From NCBI GenBank assembly GCA_023701245.1, contig JAMPXK010000009.1, positions 1-62,873 of the forward strand: DNA of 62,873 nt, read 5' to 3'. The position numbers and the translations under genes are program-made. Position 1 is the stretch's first letter. Every line of letters begins with the position of its first letter. Below, piece by piece: positions 11,487 through 20,103 of this stretch. The stretch is from Elusimicrobiales bacterium (GTDB taxonomy: Bacteria; Elusimicrobiota; Elusimicrobia; Elusimicrobiales; UBA9959). The notes beneath the pieces are model-generated. The model saw only the letters and a list, made by a program, of their open reading frames with translations. It ran no database searches and had not been told where the DNA came from.

Positions 11487-11577
11487 GGAAGGATGGCCGA
11501 GCGGTTTAAGGCGCCGGTCTTGAAAACCGGTGTACGGTTAATCCGTACCGTGGGTTCGAATCCCACTCCTTCCGCCA
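11487..11577 (+). tRNA. tRNA-Ser (anticodon TGA), CCA encoded
   Basis: GGAAGGATGGCCGAGCGG...CCGGTCTTGAAAACCGG...long variable arm...GGGTTCGAATCCCACTCCTTCCGCCA; class II tRNA folds by eye. Confidence 0.95.
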
Positions 11578-11807
11578 GTTATTCCTTGAAGTAAGCGGCG
11601 GGCGCTACATCCGCGGAAGCCCGCCGGCCCTCTGAGGAGGGGTTCAGCGAACGGGCCGCCGAAGGCGGCAGAGCGAGCGGCGAAGGGGAACGACGTTCCC
11701 CTTGCAGGGTGCGCGAAGCGCACAATTCAGTGTTCAGGCACCGGGCCCGCACCTTGTAAGGCCCGGCGGTTAATCCGCCCCGAGCGAAAGCGAGGGGTGC
11801 GACAGAT

Positions 11808-11892
11808 GGAGAGGTGTGTGAGTGGTTGAAACAGCAGGTCTCGAAAACCTGTAAGGGTCAAACCTTCGAGGGTTCGAATCCCTCCCTCTCCG
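11808..11892 (+). tRNA. tRNA-Ser (anticodon CGA), CCA not encoded
   Basis: GGAGAGGTGTGTGAGTGG...CAGGTCTCGAAAACCTG...GGGTTCGAATCCCTCCCTCTCCG; acceptor GGAGAGG/CCTCTCC. Confidence 0.92.
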
Positions 11893-11894
11893 AA
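11875..11894 (+). repeat. 20-bp direct repeat, copy 1 (3' end of tRNA-Ser CGA)
   Basis: CGAATCCCTCCCTCTCCGAA, identical to 12130-12149. Confidence 0.95.
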
Positions 11895-12030: not shown

Positions 12031-12141
12031 GGGAGGGATTCGAAAGGCGGAGCCGCGAGGCCAGCTGGCCGCAGCGGCGAGCCGGGGTCGCGGGCACTGA
12101 GGCGCGACGGTGCCGAAGCGACCTATGACCGAATCCCTCCC
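12031..12141. repeat. Inverted-repeat-bounded hairpin-rich segment (tRNA TpsiC-arm-like termini)
   Basis: GGGAGGGATTCG (12031-12042) is the exact inverse of CGAATCCCTCCC (12130-12141). Confidence 0.7.
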
Positions 12142-12149
12142 TCTCCGAA
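12130..12149 (+). repeat. 20-bp direct repeat, copy 2 (detached tRNA-Ser 3' end, att-like)
   Basis: CGAATCCCTCCCTCTCCGAA, identical to 11875-11894; marks the switch to AT-richer sequence. Confidence 0.95.
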
Positions 12150-12385: not shown

Positions 12386-13723
12386 TTATTTAAGCCCCTT
12401 GGATTCCTTCAGTATGGCTTCAATTTCTGGCGCATTCGGAATATCGTTGCTCAACGGGAAGACCTGGTAGGATTTTACGGCAACCTGGCCTTTCTCATTA
12501 CGATATAAGACGATTCGCCCCATATTTTGGAGATTCCCGCCGGACTGGACAATATTCGTGTCGCCAACCCTTATAGGCGTTTTAAGCAGTTCCTGTGAGT
12601 GTCCTGCAATTATCAGATCGATTTGAGGGAATTCCGCCGCAAGTCTTTTGCTTTCAGCAAGACCGGCATGAGCAAGAAGCACTAGAATATCAGCCTTTTT
12701 CCCCGCCTTTAACTCATCCTGCAATTTTCCGAACGCCAAGCGCTGGGCAAAATCTTCCGAATAAAGTGAAAATGTTTCTGGGTTGGCATAAGAAACAACT
12801 CTAACTTTTATGTCGCCTGCCGTTATGGTCTTTTCCATCATACCGGGCGCGGCGCCATTTAGCTTTACGTTCGAGGTTAATATAGGAAGTTTTTCATTAT
12901 CTATGGCTTTAGCTAAATCACTATAAACCAGTTCCTGGTCACCAGCGGCAATTGCATCGTATTTCGCCGCAGCCATAGCCTTCAAAATTAATGCGGCCTG
13001 TGCGGCAGTAACCCCATAGGGAAGAAAATCGCCGGAATCCAATAAGATGGTGTGCTTGTAGCTGGAGGTTTGTTGTTTGAAGAGAGAAACCAATTTTATG
13101 AGGCCGCCATACGGGTGTTTATAGCAATTGCACGATTCCAAATAGCCATTTATAGAACCAGTAAAAAAAATCGCCACCTCACTGATCTTTTGCCATTGTT
13201 TGTTACTCAACCTAGCGATCTTATCCTCTAATGAAGCTTTTCTTTTGTCATCGTATGACTCGGAAACGTATTCAATGGTGCCAGTTGGAGAAATAATAAA
13301 TATTTTGGGAACGACGACAAAGGCTCCGCGCATCAGGCCATACTTCTTTCCCATGGTTTTAGCTTTGGGGTCCCACAATACCGGGAATTGGATTTTTCTT
13401 TTTGAAACAAACCTTTCCAGTTTCTCCTTATCGCCATCAACGCCTACCAGGTACACGGCGACATTCCGGCCCTTAATCACCTCCGGCAGGTCGCTGATCT
13501 CTTTTTGGCAGCTATCGCACCAAGTGCCGAAAAAAGAAAGGATTACTGGTTTATCGTCTTGCAAGATATTGGAAAGTGAAACAGTTTTCCCATTAAGGTC
13601 CGGCAGTTCAAATTCTTGAGCCCACTCTCCTAGAACAAGACCTGAGGTAAGGCGCAATGGGGCAAACAGAAGCAATCCCGCCAAAACCCCTAGCGTGATA
13701 TGGCTTTTACTATTTTTCTGCAT
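12386..13723 (-). CDS. Thioredoxin-like (TlpA/AhpC-TSA) domain fused to a 5'-nucleotidase/metallophosphatase-like domain, exported
   Basis: N-terminal hydrophobic segment; FFGTWCDSCQKEISDLPEV (CxxC); FTGSINGYLESCNCYKHPYGGLIKLVSLF, LLDSGDFLPYG, LIIAGHSQELLKTPIRVGDTNIVQSGG. Confidence 0.8.
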   Translation of the reverse strand: MQKNSKSHITLGVLAGLLLFAPLRLTSGLVLGEWAQEFELPDLNGKTVSLSNILQDDKPVILSFFGTWCDSCQKEISDLPEVIKGRNVAVYLVGVDGDKEKLERFVSKRKIQFPVLWDPKAKTMGKKYGLMRGAFVVVPKIFIISPTGTIEYVSESYDDKRKASLEDKIARLSNKQWQKISEVAIFFTGSINGYLESCNCYKHPYGGLIKLVSLFKQQTSSYKHTILLDSGDFLPYGVTAAQAALILKAMAAAKYDAIAAGDQELVYSDLAKAIDNEKLPILTSNVKLNGAAPGMMEKTITAGDIKVRVVSYANPETFSLYSEDFAQRLAFGKLQDELKAGKKADILVLLAHAGLAESKRLAAEFPQIDLIIAGHSQELLKTPIRVGDTNIVQSGGNLQNMGRIVLYRNEKGQVAVKSYQVFPLSNDIPNAPEIEAILKESKGLK

Positions 13724-15027
13724 GCGTCTTTTATCCCGCTGGAATTGGCCGATTCGCTTTCATATGAGGCGATTATCTTGCCGGTTTCCACATCAAGCAC
13801 ATTAACCGAGACATAGTATGTTCCCTCAAGTTTTGATAGAGACCCGACAAGCATTAGTTTGACATTAAGCAGTTTGCCCATCTCAGCAGCACATTCCTGT
13901 TCAGTACAACCACTATTCTGGAATTTCTGTTCGGCCAATACAGTATCCATATTGGCCCTGTCCATCACATTAAATAGGCCAACAGACACAAGCTCTGTCC
14001 TTAAAAAGTTGGCTACGATAGCCGCATCCGCCTGTGACACATTTTGGCCGGTAAATTCTGCGACGGCCATATCAGTCCCGCTAGATATTCTTACAGCCTT
14101 AGCTTTGGCCACTACTTTGGCATTCGGAACCCAAATATTCCCAAAAGTATCCTTGGCTTTAGCCCCGAAAGCAAATGAGACCCCCGCTTTATGAGTTGTG
14201 CCAAGATCCCCATAACTCAAAAAAGCATAATCGAAACGCGTTTTACCCAGCCCAAGACCTAAGCCGAAAGTCAGTCCCCCGAAGTCTTCCTTAAACCTCC
14301 ACCCACTTCTTAATTTAACCGAGTCCGAAATTAAAACCTCTCCACCTGCATTGAGGCAGTTTCCGGCCTCGCCTTCTTTTTTAAAATCAGCTGCTAAAAG
14401 ATATTTTTTTTTGCCATACGCAATACCGAACCTGGACACTTTTGCGACCTTGTATCCAAATATTGTGCCGCCATAATTCTGAGCGGCTGCCCCAATACGC
14501 CAGCCTCCCAGCCTATATATTGCTCCGGCGTCGTAGACAGTAGCCCTGGACGACTGATCAGCTATCTTCTCACTATAAGATTTAAACGAGACGCCTAAAG
14601 CCAAAGCCCCAAATCTATAAGCTGCCGTCACTGGGATAATACTCCCTTGGTAGCCAAAAGTGTCGCCTGTATCATTTCCAAGAGAATCGTAAACCGGCTC
14701 ATCATTAGTTTTAAAAATGCTTGGGGACACATCGATAACCAGTTTTTTAAATGGATAGGTAAGGGCCACAGAATTTCCGCTGACATCCTGTAAATATACG
14801 TGGTGAACAAAAGAAATTTCTGGATGCTTAAAAAAAGCAATGCCTGCCGGGTTGTAATATGCACCAAAAGGCTCATCTGCTATCGCGGCGAAAGAATCAC
14901 CCATGCCTCCGGCCCGGGCCGATACCGGCAATTTTAAAAAGACTCCGCTTTCCTGAGCTGTCAGCTGGCTTGTGAAACCTAAAAATAAGGCAGTTAGGAG
15001 GAAACCGCAAAAAATATCCTTTCTCAT
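13690..15027 (-). CDS. PorV/UPF0164-like outer-membrane barrel with C-terminal CsgG/FlgO-like domain
   Basis: Signal peptide; FLKLPVSARAGGMGDSFAAIADEPFGAYYNPAGIAF (PorV-like start); C-terminal VAVAEFTGQNVSQADAAIVANFLRTELVSVGLFNVMDRANMDTVLAEQ...LMLVGSLSKLEGTYYVSVNVLDVETGKI. Confidence 0.8.
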   Translation of the reverse strand: MRKDIFCGFLLTALFLGFTSQLTAQESGVFLKLPVSARAGGMGDSFAAIADEPFGAYYNPAGIAFFKHPEISFVHHVYLQDVSGNSVALTYPFKKLVIDVSPSIFKTNDEPVYDSLGNDTGDTFGYQGSIIPVTAAYRFGALALGVSFKSYSEKIADQSSRATVYDAGAIYRLGGWRIGAAAQNYGGTIFGYKVAKVSRFGIAYGKKKYLLAADFKKEGEAGNCLNAGGEVLISDSVKLRSGWRFKEDFGGLTFGLGLGLGKTRFDYAFLSYGDLGTTHKAGVSFAFGAKAKDTFGNIWVPNAKVVAKAKAVRISSGTDMAVAEFTGQNVSQADAAIVANFLRTELVSVGLFNVMDRANMDTVLAEQKFQNSGCTEQECAAEMGKLLNVKLMLVGSLSKLEGTYYVSVNVLDVETGKIIASYESESANSSGIKDACRKIVKAISR

Positions 15028-16523
15028 TTTTTAACTCCGATTTTCCTAACTTCTTTGCCACCTGGATAGACATAATGCAGGAAATACATGCCTGGCACAA
15101 CATAACGTCCACTATCATCCTTGCCATCCCAGTCCTTCTGCATAATCCCAGTACCGGAATTCCCATCGAACAATGTTCTTATGTGTTTGCCCGACAAATC
15201 AAATATTCTCAATGACACGTTGCCCGCACGCGGGACATTGAAGGAAATTTTAGCGGTTCCTCCGGCTATGGGATTAAACAGATTATCTCCGAGAGTAATT
15301 TCAGATTTTCTCTGCGGTTTTTGCTCCGAAGATTCAAGTAAAGCAAAATTCAATAGTGTGTCGGCACTTGGAACTATCCCGATCTTTGTCACTGTCTGAT
15401 AACCTGGGGCAGAGGCACGGACATCATAGGTCCCGGCAGGGAGATCAATTACATAATTTGATGAAGTTATAAAGTTGGCCACCACGTTCCCGTTCTGCAA
15501 TGCTTCAACCGTATAATTCTGAATTGCCGTCACACCGTCATGTTTTGTTACTCTGCCGGAGAGGACACGACTGGAGAAAATAGCGGAAATTTCATCTGCG
15601 CTTAAACTCCTGTTATAAACCCTAACCTCATCAATTCTTACCTGCCCCGTTTGGGCTAATGCGTTCCCAATAATAATATCCGCGCTATTTGCAGAAGCAC
15701 TGTAGACATCACTACCGGTAGAATAGCTGGAATTTAAGCCGCCATTTGTAAAAAAACTAAGAAAATATCCGCTTCCTGTGTAGGGAGAAAATGCTGCATG
15801 GGTCCAAGAATCAAGAGGGACTTCTTGCTGACTACTGTGCCATGACCCATCCGCTCCATGAAGATCGTGTTTGTATCTGACTTCAATAGGGTAATGCCAT
15901 GAGTCTAGTGCCATAGCCCATCCCACAGCAGTGTATTTTGAAATAATACTGACAGGGTTTTGTGACGCAGGCTTTATCCAAGCCATGATGGTAAAATTAT
16001 TTGTCAAATCAAAATGCGCGTCATTGGGGATAGTTACAATATCGCCAACCCCGGTGAAATTCAAGGCTGTTCCGGTTCTCCCTGTGGTCCAAGCTGCGCC
16101 CGCAATAACGCCATGGTGTCCATAGCCAGAGGAATCAAACGCTTTTGTGCCAGCACCCTCATTAAAGCGCCAGTAACCCACAAGACCAGGCAATGCTGGC
16201 GATAGATGAACATTCAAAACATCCTGATTCACAAACGAAACTGTGCCCATAAACCTGGCGTTATATCCGATAGAAGAAACAAAAACATCATAGGTGCCCG
16301 CAGTTAAGTTAATAATATAATCCCCGTTTGAATCCGCAGTAGCAGAGTATTGCTGCACACCGCCTGAATATATTTCCACTAGTGCGCCTGGAATAGGGAT
16401 GCTGCTTGGCGACATGATTTTTCCGGAAATCGCCCATGCAGTTGTTGGCAGATTAGCACCTAAAACCACAATGGCGGCAATAAAATATTTTTTAAGCATA
16501 TTCAGGTTTTCCAAGAACAGCAA
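15024..16523 (-). CDS. Secreted LamG/concanavalin-like protein with carboxypeptidase-regulatory-like repeats and a FlgD/T9SS-type C-terminal domain
   Basis: GLVGYWRFNEGAGTKAFDSSGYGHHG...VRIDEVRVYNRSLSADEI (LamG); two AGTYDVxxSxxGY repeats; C-terminal ISFNVPRAGNVSLRIFDLSGKHIRTLFDGNSGTGIMQKDWDGKDDSGRYVVPGMYFLHYVYPGGKEVRKIGVKK. Confidence 0.82.
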   Translation of the reverse strand: MLFLENLNMLKKYFIAAIVVLGANLPTTAWAISGKIMSPSSIPIPGALVEIYSGGVQQYSATADSNGDYIINLTAGTYDVFVSSIGYNARFMGTVSFVNQDVLNVHLSPALPGLVGYWRFNEGAGTKAFDSSGYGHHGVIAGAAWTTGRTGTALNFTGVGDIVTIPNDAHFDLTNNFTIMAWIKPASQNPVSIISKYTAVGWAMALDSWHYPIEVRYKHDLHGADGSWHSSQQEVPLDSWTHAAFSPYTGSGYFLSFFTNGGLNSSYSTGSDVYSASANSADIIIGNALAQTGQVRIDEVRVYNRSLSADEISAIFSSRVLSGRVTKHDGVTAIQNYTVEALQNGNVVANFITSSNYVIDLPAGTYDVRASAPGYQTVTKIGIVPSADTLLNFALLESSEQKPQRKSEITLGDNLFNPIAGGTAKISFNVPRAGNVSLRIFDLSGKHIRTLFDGNSGTGIMQKDWDGKDDSGRYVVPGMYFLHYVYPGGKEVRKIGVKK

Positions 16524-16755: not shown

Positions 16756-17190
16756 TGATTGGGCGGGTGCAGCTCCCGCCGGTGGTTACAAATCAATCAC
16801 ACAAAAGACCACCGCGGCGGCCGCAGTAGCGGACGCCGAAGGCGGACCCGGTGTGGAGCAAAGCGAAACCCCGTGCGGCCAGCAGGCCGCGCATAGGAGG
16901 TTGCTGTAAGATGCCGCTTAACTTGGGAGCAGGTGCAAGGCGCGTTAGTGCCGCCGCCCTGCGAACCCGCCTTCTCGCGGCAAGGAGCAGTGCGGGGCCG
17001 CGCTTCGTGGCCACGCCTGCGACGACATCTCGCGGATAAGCTCGGGACTCCTTCGATAACACGGATCAAAGACGACACTTAGAGCGCTTCATCGGGGTTT
17101 TCGACAAAGAAAAGTCGAACTTTAGTGCGAAGACTCCGCCAGTTTTAAACGGCACCGAAAGACCCGCGAAAGCGGGTTCTTTCTTTTTCG
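16756..17190 (+). other. Hairpin-dense intergenic region, candidate structured RNA ending at a terminator
   Basis: GGCGGGTGCAGCTCCCGCC; GGTGGT...ACCACC; CGGCCAGCAGGCCG; GGCGGA near 16836 complements TCCGCC near 17140; terminator-like end. No match recognised to tmRNA, RNase P or SRP RNA core motifs. Confidence 0.4.
17158..17190 (+). terminator. Rho-independent terminator just upstream of the histidine kinase gene
   Basis: ACCCGC-GAAA-GCGGGT followed by TCTTTCTTTTTC. Confidence 0.75.
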
Positions 17191-17225
17191 AGCAGCGCCG
17201 GGATATTTTTTATACAATTCTGAAC

Positions 17226-18776
17226 ATGACCTCGAAAGCAAACATCCTGATCGTGGACGACGAAGCCCAGATAGCCGAAATGATCCTGGCCACCCTGCAG
17301 GCCAACGGCTATTCGGCCGCGGTCGCCTTCAACGGCAGCGAGGGCCTGAAGAAGGCCGCCGCGGAAAAATTCGACCTGGCCATCATGGACATCCAGATGC
17401 CGGAGATGGACGGCATCACCGCCCTGGGCGAGATAAAGAAGATAGACCCCGAGATAGAGGTCATCATAGCCACCGGCCACGGCACCATGGGCACGGCCAT
17501 CCAGAGCATGCGCAAAGGCGCCTTCGACTACCTGCACAAACCCTTCGAACTGAAGGAACTGCTGAAGGTGGTGGAGCGCGCGGTGGAAAAGCGCAAGTTC
17601 AACGACATCGCCAAGGTGATCTTCTCCACTATCAAGCCCGAAGACCAGCTGCGCGTCATCATAGACGCCGTCACCCGCATCATGAAGGCCGACGAATCCA
17701 TGCTGGTGCTGCCGGACGCCGAGGGCAAGCCCCGGGTGGCGGTCTCCAACGGCCTGGAGGACGAGGAAAGCCGCGCCTCCCGCCTGGAGATGTGCGCGCG
17801 CGTGACGTCGCAGCCGGAAGGCCCCCCAAAAGCCCTGCTGCTGGTGGAGAACCCCTCCATAGACAACAAGTTCGCCGGCATCAAGGGCCTGGAGAAGGTA
17901 AAGTTCTCCCTTTTCCTGCCGCTGGTGGAGGACAATAAGCCCGCGGGCCTCATAAACATCAACCGCGACGAGGAAGACGCCTACTTCACCGAGGACGACA
18001 TGCAGCGGGCCCGCATTTTCGCCTCGCTGGTGAACCTCGCCATGCGCAATTCCAGCCTCTACCGCCAGCTGCAGGAGACGCAGTCCCAGCTTATCCAGGC
18101 GGAAAAGATGTCCGCCCTGGGCCAGCTGGCCGGCGGCCTCGCGCACGAGATCAACAACCCCCTCTCCGGCATCCTGGGCCTGACGCAGCTGGTCCTGGAA
18201 AGCCTGCCCAAGGACGGCCAGAACTACGCCGACCTCAAAGAGATAGAGAAGGCCGTCTTCCGCTGCAAGAAGATCATAGTTTCCCTGCTGTCCTTCTCCC
18301 GGCAGGAAAAGACCCGCATGGAACCGGTGAACATCAACGAGGCCATAGAGGAAACGCTTACCCTCTGCGCCCGCCAGATGGAACTCAAACACGTGAAGAT
18401 AAACCGCCAGCTGACCCCCGGCCTGCCCATGGTCAACGCCGACTTTCAGCAGCTCATGCAGGTGTTCCTGAACCTGTTCACCAACGCCCGGGACGCCATG
18501 CCCGACGGAGGAGAACTGTCCATAGAGACCCGCCTGCTCAGGACCCCCGCCGGGGTCGAACTGCTCATGACCTCCATAACCGATACCGGCGCCGGCATCA
18601 GCCGCGACATCCTGGACAAGATATTCGACCCGTTCTTCACCACCAAGCCGGTGGGCAAGGGCACGGGCCTGGGCCTGTCGGTCTGCCTGGGCATCATCCA
18701 CAAGCACAACGGCGCCATCAAGGCGCAGAGCGAGCCCGGCAGGGGCTCCACCTTCACCATCAGCCTGCCGGTGTGA
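17226..18776 (+). CDS. Hybrid sensor histidine kinase: N-terminal REC, GAF-like domain, HisKA, HATPase_c
   Basis: NILIVDDEAQIAEMILATLQ...DLAIMDIQMPEMDG; LAGGLAHEINNPLSGILGLTQL (H box); VFLNLFTNARDAMPDGG; GKGTGLGLSVCLGIIHKHNG. Confidence 0.93.
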   Translation: MTSKANILIVDDEAQIAEMILATLQANGYSAAVAFNGSEGLKKAAAEKFDLAIMDIQMPEMDGITALGEIKKIDPEIEVIIATGHGTMGTAIQSMRKGAFDYLHKPFELKELLKVVERAVEKRKFNDIAKVIFSTIKPEDQLRVIIDAVTRIMKADESMLVLPDAEGKPRVAVSNGLEDEESRASRLEMCARVTSQPEGPPKALLLVENPSIDNKFAGIKGLEKVKFSLFLPLVEDNKPAGLININRDEEDAYFTEDDMQRARIFASLVNLAMRNSSLYRQLQETQSQLIQAEKMSALGQLAGGLAHEINNPLSGILGLTQLVLESLPKDGQNYADLKEIEKAVFRCKKIIVSLLSFSRQEKTRMEPVNINEAIEETLTLCARQMELKHVKINRQLTPGLPMVNADFQQLMQVFLNLFTNARDAMPDGGELSIETRLLRTPAGVELLMTSITDTGAGISRDILDKIFDPFFTTKPVGKGTGLGLSVCLGIIHKHNGAIKAQSEPGRGSTFTISLPV

Positions 18777-19191: not shown

Positions 19192-20103
19192 TCAATGCAG
19201 GCCGCACTCGTCCGAGACGCGGCTCTCCTCTTCCATAAGGGCTATCACGGTGTTCATTTCCCCCGCGCTCAGCACGGGGACCGCGCCGCCGCGGTGAAAG
19301 GAATCCAGCAGCGCGTAGAAGCGCTGCTTGCCGCGCTCGTCGAGCATCTCCCCGCCGGGGTTGCGCTTGAGCCTGGAGGCGCTGAAGGCGGGGTCGCGCA
19401 TCTGCAGCGCCCAGTACTTGGCCTTCGCCTCCACGGCGCCCATCTGCCTGACGGCCAGCAGCGCCTTGCGGGTATTGCAGGTCTCGGTGTTAAGGCTCTT
19501 GGGCGCGTCGCGGAAGTCCACGAAGGCGGGCTTTATCTCCTCTTCGCCGAACATGGCGGCCAGTTCGCGCAGGTCGGGCACGTCGAACTGGAACTCCGGG
19601 CGCTCGGGCAGGATGTCCCACTGGCGGTCGGTCTGCGCCTCCACGGTATGCAGCACGGCCCCGGTCAGGGGGTCTATCATCTTGGCTATTATCATAAGGT
19701 GTTCTTTAGTGCCGAAGATGGTCCCCACGATGATGGCGTCCGAAGGGTTGATCCTCCTGGGCGAGCCCTCGGGCGCCTCGTCGGTCACCCCGGAGGCGGA
19801 CAGGCGGCGCTCCTCCAGCACCTTGTCGAGCTGCGAGCGCTCCAGCAGGTTCACCTTGCCGGAAGCCACCAGGCCCGACAGCAGTTTTTCAGAGATGTAG
19901 TCGCTCTCCTCCCGGGAGGTCCTGGCCTTGCGGGAGAAGCCTATCACGGCCACGTTCTTCACTTTCTTGTTGGTGGAGTACTTGGCGAAGTCGTTCGCCA
20001 TTTTCCGGTAGACGTCCTCGGCGGCCTGGGAGGAGGTGGCACACAGCAGAAGCGCGGCGGCGGCGGCCAAGGTCAGTTTGAAAGCTGGCGTCATCCTTTT
20101 CAT
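19192..20103 (-). CDS. Secreted CsgG/FlgO-like domain protein
   Basis: Signal peptide (LTLAAAAALLLCATSSQAA); VAVIGFSRKARTSREESDYISEKLLSGLVASGKVNLLERSQLDKVLEERRL; DAIIVGTIFGTKEHLMIIAKMIDPLTGAVLHTVEA. Confidence 0.75.
   Translation of the reverse strand: MKRMTPAFKLTLAAAAALLLCATSSQAAEDVYRKMANDFAKYSTNKKVKNVAVIGFSRKARTSREESDYISEKLLSGLVASGKVNLLERSQLDKVLEERRLSASGVTDEAPEGSPRRINPSDAIIVGTIFGTKEHLMIIAKMIDPLTGAVLHTVEAQTDRQWDILPERPEFQFDVPDLRELAAMFGEEEIKPAFVDFRDAPKSLNTETCNTRKALLAVRQMGAVEAKAKYWALQMRDPAFSASRLKRNPGGEMLDERGKQRFYALLDSFHRGGAVPVLSAGEMNTVIALMEEESRVSDECGLH

What the first reader, a model, noticed from the sequence alone, without database searches (positions are those of the whole stretch)
12386..16523. 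AT-richer three-gene cassette beside tRNA-Ser: possible horizontally acquired surface/secretion module
Seen: three overlapping minus-strand genes (LamG/CTD protein, PorV-CsgG fusion, TlpA-metallophosphatase) have visibly lower GC than everything around them. They are bounded by tRNA-Ser DNA with a duplicated 3' end on one side and hairpin-rich DNA on the other. Known: PorV/UPF0164 barrels act as shuttles in the type IX secretion system (T9SS), and FlgD-like/type A C-terminal domains are T9SS sorting signals. Inference: a cargo plus dedicated PorV-like carrier plus redox/phosphatase partner, acquired as a unit and outside the well-studied Bacteroidota T9SS.
Basis: partly seen in the sequence, partly recalled or inferred. 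Interest (0 to 1): 0.75.

Follow-up and report, generated by a model that had tools for sequence, protein, structure and literature searches.

The report
Mobile surface-protein secretion cassette in Elusimicrobiota
A three-gene block that looks horizontally acquired encodes a surface protein, its own dedicated outer-membrane carrier and a redox partner, in a bacterial phylum that turns out to carry the core channel of a type IX-like secretion system previously reported only for the Bacteroidota group and its relatives.

Summary
Confirmed and extended. The trio (12386-16523, minus) has GC 44-45% and GC3 0.40-0.47; genome median GC3 is 0.81. It lies between two tRNA-Ser genes and a histidine-kinase gene. 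Two congeneric genomes have those flanks only 47-68 nt apart, others carry different AT-richer genes there, and homologous trios lie at other loci. So this is an insertion hot spot and probable horizontal gain, though no integrase was found and the gene tree alone is not decisive (AU p 0.07).

The host is an Elusimicrobiota bacterium. The middle protein is a PorV-family barrel plus a CsgG/LpoB-like periplasmic domain. Gene 1 ends in a type A (TIGR04183) sorting domain. The genome has one SprA-like translocon gene, found in 61/61 order relatives and 166/199 genomes of the phylum. Most PorV barrels (12/17 here, 26/30 in relatives) follow a CTD-bearing gene; CTD and barrel co-diverge, and in one relative both are replaced together.

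All 14 CsgG domains of this cassette family carry a CX4C motif plus a third Cys; five others in the genome lack the motif. The linked TlpA-UshA-like fusion suggests redox control of the carrier. Its "phosphatase" half lacks key active-site residues.

PorKLMN and PorU were not found, but searches lacked a working positive control. Secretion itself is inferred.

The parts
15024..16523 (-). Cargo protein gene (499 aa from TTG; probable start ATG at 16499): signal peptide, CarboxypepD_reg repeat, LamG, C-terminal sorting domain; no cysteines in the protein
15585..16049 (-). LamG-like (Laminin_G_3) domain, residues 159-313
   Evidence: E 1.2e-17
15027..15311 (-). C-terminal sorting domain (about 95 aa), type A/FlgD-like; 69-76% identical in relatives whose cargo N-parts are unrelated
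   Evidence: TIGR04183 36.1 bits over cut-off 23
13690..15027 (-). PorV-family outer-membrane barrel fused to a periplasmic CsgG/LpoB-like domain (445 aa)
   Evidence: NF033709 92.2 bits, cut-off 90; AlphaFold model matches PorV 8gl6_F/6h3i_F; profile hits PorV only in PDB
13705..14085 (-). CsgG/LpoB-like domain, residues 315-441
   Evidence: PF03783 44.6 bits; LpoB 4q6z_A fold match; domain limits
13891..13908 (-). CX4C motif of the CsgG domain (Cys374, Cys379); third Cys436 at 13720-13722
   Evidence: motif present in 14/14 cassette-family CsgG domains, 0/5 other CsgG domains of this genome
12386..13723 (-). TlpA/AhpC-like thiol oxidoreductase fused to a UshA-like domain (445 aa), overlapping the PorV gene by 34 nt
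13508..13522 (-). WCDSC redox motif of the TlpA domain (WCxxC in all 8 aligned homologues)
13124..13132 (-). CNC (CX1C) motif at the UshA-like motif I region; lost in some second-copy cassettes
11487..11577 (+). tRNA-Ser (TGA)
11807..11893 (+). tRNA-Ser (CGA), left edge of the insertion hot spot
12126..12149 (+). partial repeat of the tRNA-Ser(CGA) 3' end (20 nt exact), att-like remnant
16775..17160 (.). hairpin-rich intergenic DNA; pieces recur by the same kinase gene in relatives, some inverted
17206..18776 (+). right flank: response-regulator/histidine-kinase gene (ORF 17226-18776) where alignment with empty-site genomes resumes

Best explanation
The trio is a self-contained cargo-plus-carrier cassette for a type IX-like secretion pathway of Elusimicrobiota. 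Shown by sequence: a signal-peptide protein with a type A-like C-terminal domain, a PorV-type barrel with a periplasmic CsgG-like tail, and a TlpA-UshA-like partner, in a conserved order, in a genome that also encodes one SprA-like translocon. Inferred: the cargo crosses the inner membrane by Sec; its C-terminal domain is threaded through SprA and collected by its own barrel, which keeps it on the surface as SprF keeps SprB. The periplasmic tail of the carrier carries a cysteine pair whose redox state is set by the TlpA partner, either to fold the tail or to let it form a reversible disulfide to a periplasmic partner. The cassette entered this genome horizontally into a tRNA-Ser insertion hot spot.
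For: PorV identity: NF033709 over cut-off; 14-strand barrel region and PorV top fold hit, mean pLDDT 65.7; only PDB hit is PorV, E 2.9e-9. CTD: (TIGR04183 over cut-off). SprA-like gene: 136 bits, E 6.8e-40; PDB SprA E 3.6e-20; 61/61; 166/199; 135/143 of the good-quality genomes. Pairing: 12 of 17 barrels in this genome directly follow a CTD gene, gap -4 to +28 nt; 26 of 30 in relatives. Recognition: CTD and barrel distances correlate over 12 paralogous pairs (r 0.54, p 0.001) more than cargo body and barrel (r 0.28, p 0.03, 10 pairs); in L039 barrel (24%) and CTD (31%) are both replaced while CsgG (60%) and TlpA (59%) stay. Redox: CX4C plus third Cys in 14/14 cassette-family CsgG domains, CX4C in 0/5 others; cargo has no Cys. 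Mobility. Precedents: cognate shuttles downstream of type B cargo (PMC12618676; PMC9143113); SprF periplasmic CXC disulfide to GldK (PMC12635249).
Against: No PorM (GldM) or PorU (C25) homologue found and only a 15-bit GldL match, so the energy source is unknown; the positive control for C25 and GldL failed, so this is not proof of absence. The SprA score is below the equivalog cut-off of 200. The 14 cysteine-bearing CsgG domains form one related group, so the association with TlpA is not 14 independent events. The cargo-body control in the Mantel test is not zero. No experiment. No integrase in the trio; the AU test does not reject a genus clade for gene 3 (p 0.07).
Confidence: 0.6

Rival explanations
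1. Secretion and carrier roles are right, but the TlpA-UshA-like protein does not act on the carrier: it is a general periplasmic oxidoreductase or stress protein that hitch-hikes in the operon.
For: The CX1C motif of the UshA-like half is lost in G033b, G026b and both OS_PC_MetaG copies; TlpA-like domains are common in these genomes.
Against: A 34-37 nt gene overlap with the PorV-CsgG gene is conserved across genera; WCxxC kept in all aligned copies; cargo has no Cys while the carrier tail has a conserved CX4C only in this cassette family.
Confidence: 0.25
2. Not secretion: the barrel is a FadL-like small-molecule transporter and the C-terminal domain an ordinary FlgD-like Ig domain; their neighbourhood reflects a general surface operon.
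For: FadL family members are among the fold matches; the CTD also matches FlgD structures; no motor genes found.
Against: PorV is the best fold match and the only PDB profile match; a SprA-like gene, as a rule single, across the phylum; a repeated CTD-then-barrel pair rule with co-divergence is not expected for a transporter.
Confidence: 0.12
3. The trio is old and vertical, with AT-richness due to local mutation or selection, and was lost from most relatives.
For: The AU test does not reject grouping with the congeneric copies (p 0.07); the gene tree otherwise roughly follows the genus.
Against: Absent from most congeneric genomes, empty or differently filled site in relatives, other loci in G019 and G026, GC3 0.40-0.47 against 0.81, and in gene 3 the other-genus copy G033a is nearer to G019 than G000 is, the reverse of SprA.
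Confidence: 0.12

Closest known systems
Type B CTD cargo with cognate PorP/SprF-like shuttle (SprB-SprF, Fjoh_3952-Fjoh_3951; F. johnsoniae)
   Same: cargo gene directly followed by its own dedicated 14-strand carrier barrel; carrier anchors cargo (PMC12618676, PMC9143113); SprF periplasmic tail has a cysteine pair used for a disulfide link (PMC12635249)
   Different: here the sorting domain is type A-like (TIGR04183) and the carrier is PorV/UPF0164-like with a CsgG-like tail; a TlpA partner is in the operon; phylum Elusimicrobiota
PorV, type A shuttle of the Bacteroidota T9SS (6h3i, 8gl6)
   Same: fold, profile match, pairing with type A CTDs
   Different: in Bacteroidota one PorV serves all type A cargo (PMC12618676); here 8-33 PorV-family matches per genome in this family, mostly paired one-to-one in the loci examined
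SprA/Sov translocon
   Same: profile matches to solved SprA, about 1700-1950 aa, as a rule one copy per genome
   Different: shorter, divergent (136 bits, cut-off 200), no por genes recognised next to it
UshA-like (seleno)protein NF041198 / 5'-nucleotidases
   Same: fold of the third protein's second half; CX1C where NF041198 is named for PCGU
   Different: far below cut-off (86.5 of 275); motif I D-x-H and the GNHE motif replaced, fused to TlpA

Membership tests
Type IX secretion system | SprA/Sov outer-membrane translocon | tested here: met
   homologue present but divergent: TIGR04189 136 bits, E 6.8e-40 (below equivalog cut-off 200); profile to PDB SprA E 3.6e-20; 61/61 and 166/199 genomes
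Type IX secretion system | PorV-type shuttle barrel | tested here: met
   NF033709 over cut-off, PDB PorV
Type IX secretion system | cargo with T9SS C-terminal domain | tested here: met
   TIGR04183 36.1 bits, cut-off 23; 10 places over cut-off in the genome
Type IX secretion system | PorL/PorM motor and PorK/PorN ring | tested here: inconclusive
   GldM no match; GldL 15 bits, below cut-off, and the P. levii control did not ring; PorK/PorN not searched
Type IX secretion system | PorU sortase (Peptidase_C25) | tested here: inconclusive
   no match, but no control genome rang either
Type IX secretion system | CTD-dependent export shown experimentally | not testable with these tools
   no experiment possible
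PorV/PorQ family (NF033709) | score over curated cut-off | tested here: met
   92.2 bits, cut-off 90
PorV equivalog (NF033710) | score over curated cut-off | tested here: not met
   21.5 bits, cut-off 250
Type B CTD (CHU_C, PF13585) | score over curated cut-off | tested here: not met
   15.2 bits, cut-off 27
Active UshA-like metallophosphatase | motif I D-x-H, motif GNH(D/E), metal ligands | tested here: not met
   motif I region reads TGSINGYL, GNHE aligned to GDQE; D232, H352, H375 kept; PF00149 20.5 bits, cut-off 21.5
tRNA-associated genomic island | empty site in close relatives | tested here: met
   G025 and G019 flanks 47-68 nt apart
tRNA-associated genomic island | integrase in the element | tested here: not met
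   none among the ORFs between 11.9 and 17.2 kb; a serine recombinase lies upstream of the same kinase gene in G026
tRNA-associated genomic island | att repeats at both ends | tested here: inconclusive
   one copy near the tRNA, none at the far end

The most novel reading that the evidence does not exclude
Elusimicrobiota run a phylum-wide type IX-like system in which one SprA serves many cargo-carrier pairs, and this cassette family is a transferable pair with built-in redox control: the carrier's periplasmic CsgG-like tail is locked or tethered through a disulfide made and broken by its own TlpA partner.
Probability: 0.3. Interest if true: 0.85.

Novelty: new variant of a known kind. Interest (0 to 1): 0.72.

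Why it matters
Surveys place T9SS in Bacteroidota (PMC4793230) or the FCB phyla and state that its genes are absent elsewhere (PMC11285876). A SprA-like gene in most Elusimicrobiota genomes, with many PorV-type barrels each behind a CTD cargo, would move the system outside that group and give a natural set of cargo-carrier pairs for working out CTD recognition. The cassette also links carrier cysteines to an encoded oxidoreductase, which bears on the recent finding that SprF and PorG are disulfide-bonded to the gliding/secretion track; that paper names no redox enzyme in the passages I read. And it suggests that such pairs can move as units between genomes.

Tried and rejected
A viral or plasmid vehicle was sought: no relative of gene 3 in viral contigs, only a distant PorV on a Rhodothermus plasmid. 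Active phosphatase reading rejected on lost motifs. A single-sequence search of the SprA-like protein in PDB found nothing; the 9-sequence profile did. PorU/PorL/PorM absence could not be claimed because controls failed. HGT by tree alone rejected as proof (AU p 0.07). The idea that the tRNA 3' repeat brackets the trio was rejected. The L039 barrel and CTD have no single best donor pair among fetched loci, so the source of the swap is unknown.
Full report
What is there. GC falls to 44-46% over exactly these genes, with GC3 0.40, 0.42 and 0.47 against a median of 0.81. The other ORFs with comparable codon deviation have GC 0.58-0.69 and are, in my reading, shadow ORFs on the wrong strand. The window is contig C41 of a 2.55 Mb, 96-contig genome. 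Its relatives in named collections are Elusimicrobiota MAGs.

Acquisition. In congeneric genomes G025 and G019 the tRNA-Ser(CGA) side and the kinase side align to the window with only 47 and 68 nt between them, against 5.3 kb here. In G013 and G030 (85-87% identical in the kinase), G021 and G026 the stretch before the same kinase gene holds other AT-richer genes; G026 has a serine recombinase and a Mu/IS-type transposase there. Their fetched stretches do not reach the tRNA genes, so for these four the left edge is not seen. Homologous trios in G019 and G026 lie on other contigs than their tRNA-Ser/kinase site. Gene 3 full-length or near full-length homologues occur in few of the 32 congeneric genomes (G000, G002, G019, G026, G027) and in G033, G034 and an OS_PC_MetaG genome. 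In the gene 3 tree the copy of another genus (G033a) is nearer to G019 than G000 is, the reverse of the SprA tree, but an AU test does not reject a genus clade (p 0.07). The tRNA 3' repeat is real but does not flank the trio. I conclude horizontal gain into a hot spot, probable rather than proven.

Conserved cassette. In about ten loci the order is cargo, PorV-CsgG, TlpA-UshA-like; the last two genes overlap by 34-37 nt nearly everywhere. Some copies are frameshifted or decayed (L034, L036, L038, L040). The cargo bodies are largely unrelated (up to 1843 aa; LamG, Kelch-like, fn3-like; short repeats are shared by some) but most end in a C-terminal domain 69-76% identical to ours, higher than the barrel (48-59%) or gene 3 (47-63%). 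In L039 the CTD (31%) and the barrel (24%) are both different while the CsgG domain (60%) and the TlpA domain (59%) are kept. That is a natural swap of exactly the two parts that should touch.

Type IX-like context. The barrel family profile hits only PorV in PDB and the AlphaFold model (mean pLDDT 65.7) matches PorV of the SprA-PorV-substrate complex best. The genome has one SprA-like gene of 1820 aa, confirmed by profile against solved SprA, in all 61 order relatives examined and 166 of 199 genomes of the phylum; the misses listed are all in one family (f10), many of them with small genomes. The family of our genome has 8-33 PorV-family matches per genome, the sister family 1-6. In our genome 12 of 17 barrels stand directly behind a CTD-bearing gene, in relatives 26 of 30. 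Over 12 paralogous pairs CTD and barrel distances correlate (r 0.54, p 0.001), the cargo body less so (r 0.28, p 0.03). GldM and Peptidase_C25 were not found and GldL only at 15 bits; positive controls failed, so this stays open.

Redox partner. Gene 3 joins a TlpA-like domain with WCDSC to a UshA-like fold. Its motif I D-x-H is replaced, GNHE aligns to GDQE, and a CX1C sits in the region where the related NF041198 family is named for PCGU. It is therefore probably not a phosphatase. The cargo has no cysteine. The carrier's CsgG domain has CX4C and a third Cys in all 14 cassette-family sequences; the CX4C is in none of five other CsgG domains of the genome, including another PorV-CsgG fusion on C74. 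F. johnsoniae SprF uses a periplasmic CXC to make a disulfide with GldK (PMC12635249). I infer, not show, that TlpA controls the carrier cysteines.

Known or new. Cognate cargo-shuttle pairs are known for type B CTDs (PMC12618676, PMC9143113). All F. johnsoniae type A CTDs use one PorV (PMC12618676). T9SS is reported as restricted to Bacteroidota (PMC4793230) or FCB phyla (PMC11285876); I found no paper in the held library that reports it in Elusimicrobiota, which does not exclude one elsewhere. The cassette is a new variant of a known kind.

Noticed in passing
G000:C76:16662-22121 (L044, L093): SprA-like gene present in 166 of 199 Elusimicrobiota genomes and in 61 of 61 order relatives, next to an unidentified 665-aa ORF, GreA-like and pgl genes.
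   Followed up: partly
L075-L086, L125-L154: General rule in these genomes: CTD-bearing surface gene immediately followed by its own PorV-family barrel gene.
   Followed up: yes
L122:2586-8130 (G026): Serine recombinase, Mu/IS-type transposase and a duplicated 70-nt post-tRNA segment before the same kinase gene, which suggests repeated use of the hot spot.
   Followed up: partly
L052:3793-4389: Separate 198-aa CsgG-domain protein with a lipobox-like N-terminus and the same CX4C motif, inserted between the PorV-CsgG and TlpA genes; its start resembles the TlpA gene's start.
   Followed up: no
L035:9391-11040, L037:10831-12477: Kelch-repeat protein with the same Cys-bearing CsgG domain directly after the TlpA gene.
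   Followed up: no
L079:3749-7009 (G000:C14): Cargo with seven tandem matches to the CTD-like domain ahead of a PorV barrel.
   Followed up: no
G000:C74 (L043:7601-9016): Second PorV-CsgG fusion in the genome, without cysteines in the CsgG domain and without a TlpA or CTD neighbour found.
   Followed up: partly
window 19192-20103: Separate CsgG-domain protein close to the hot spot, unlike the cassette CsgG domain (no CX4C).
   Followed up: no
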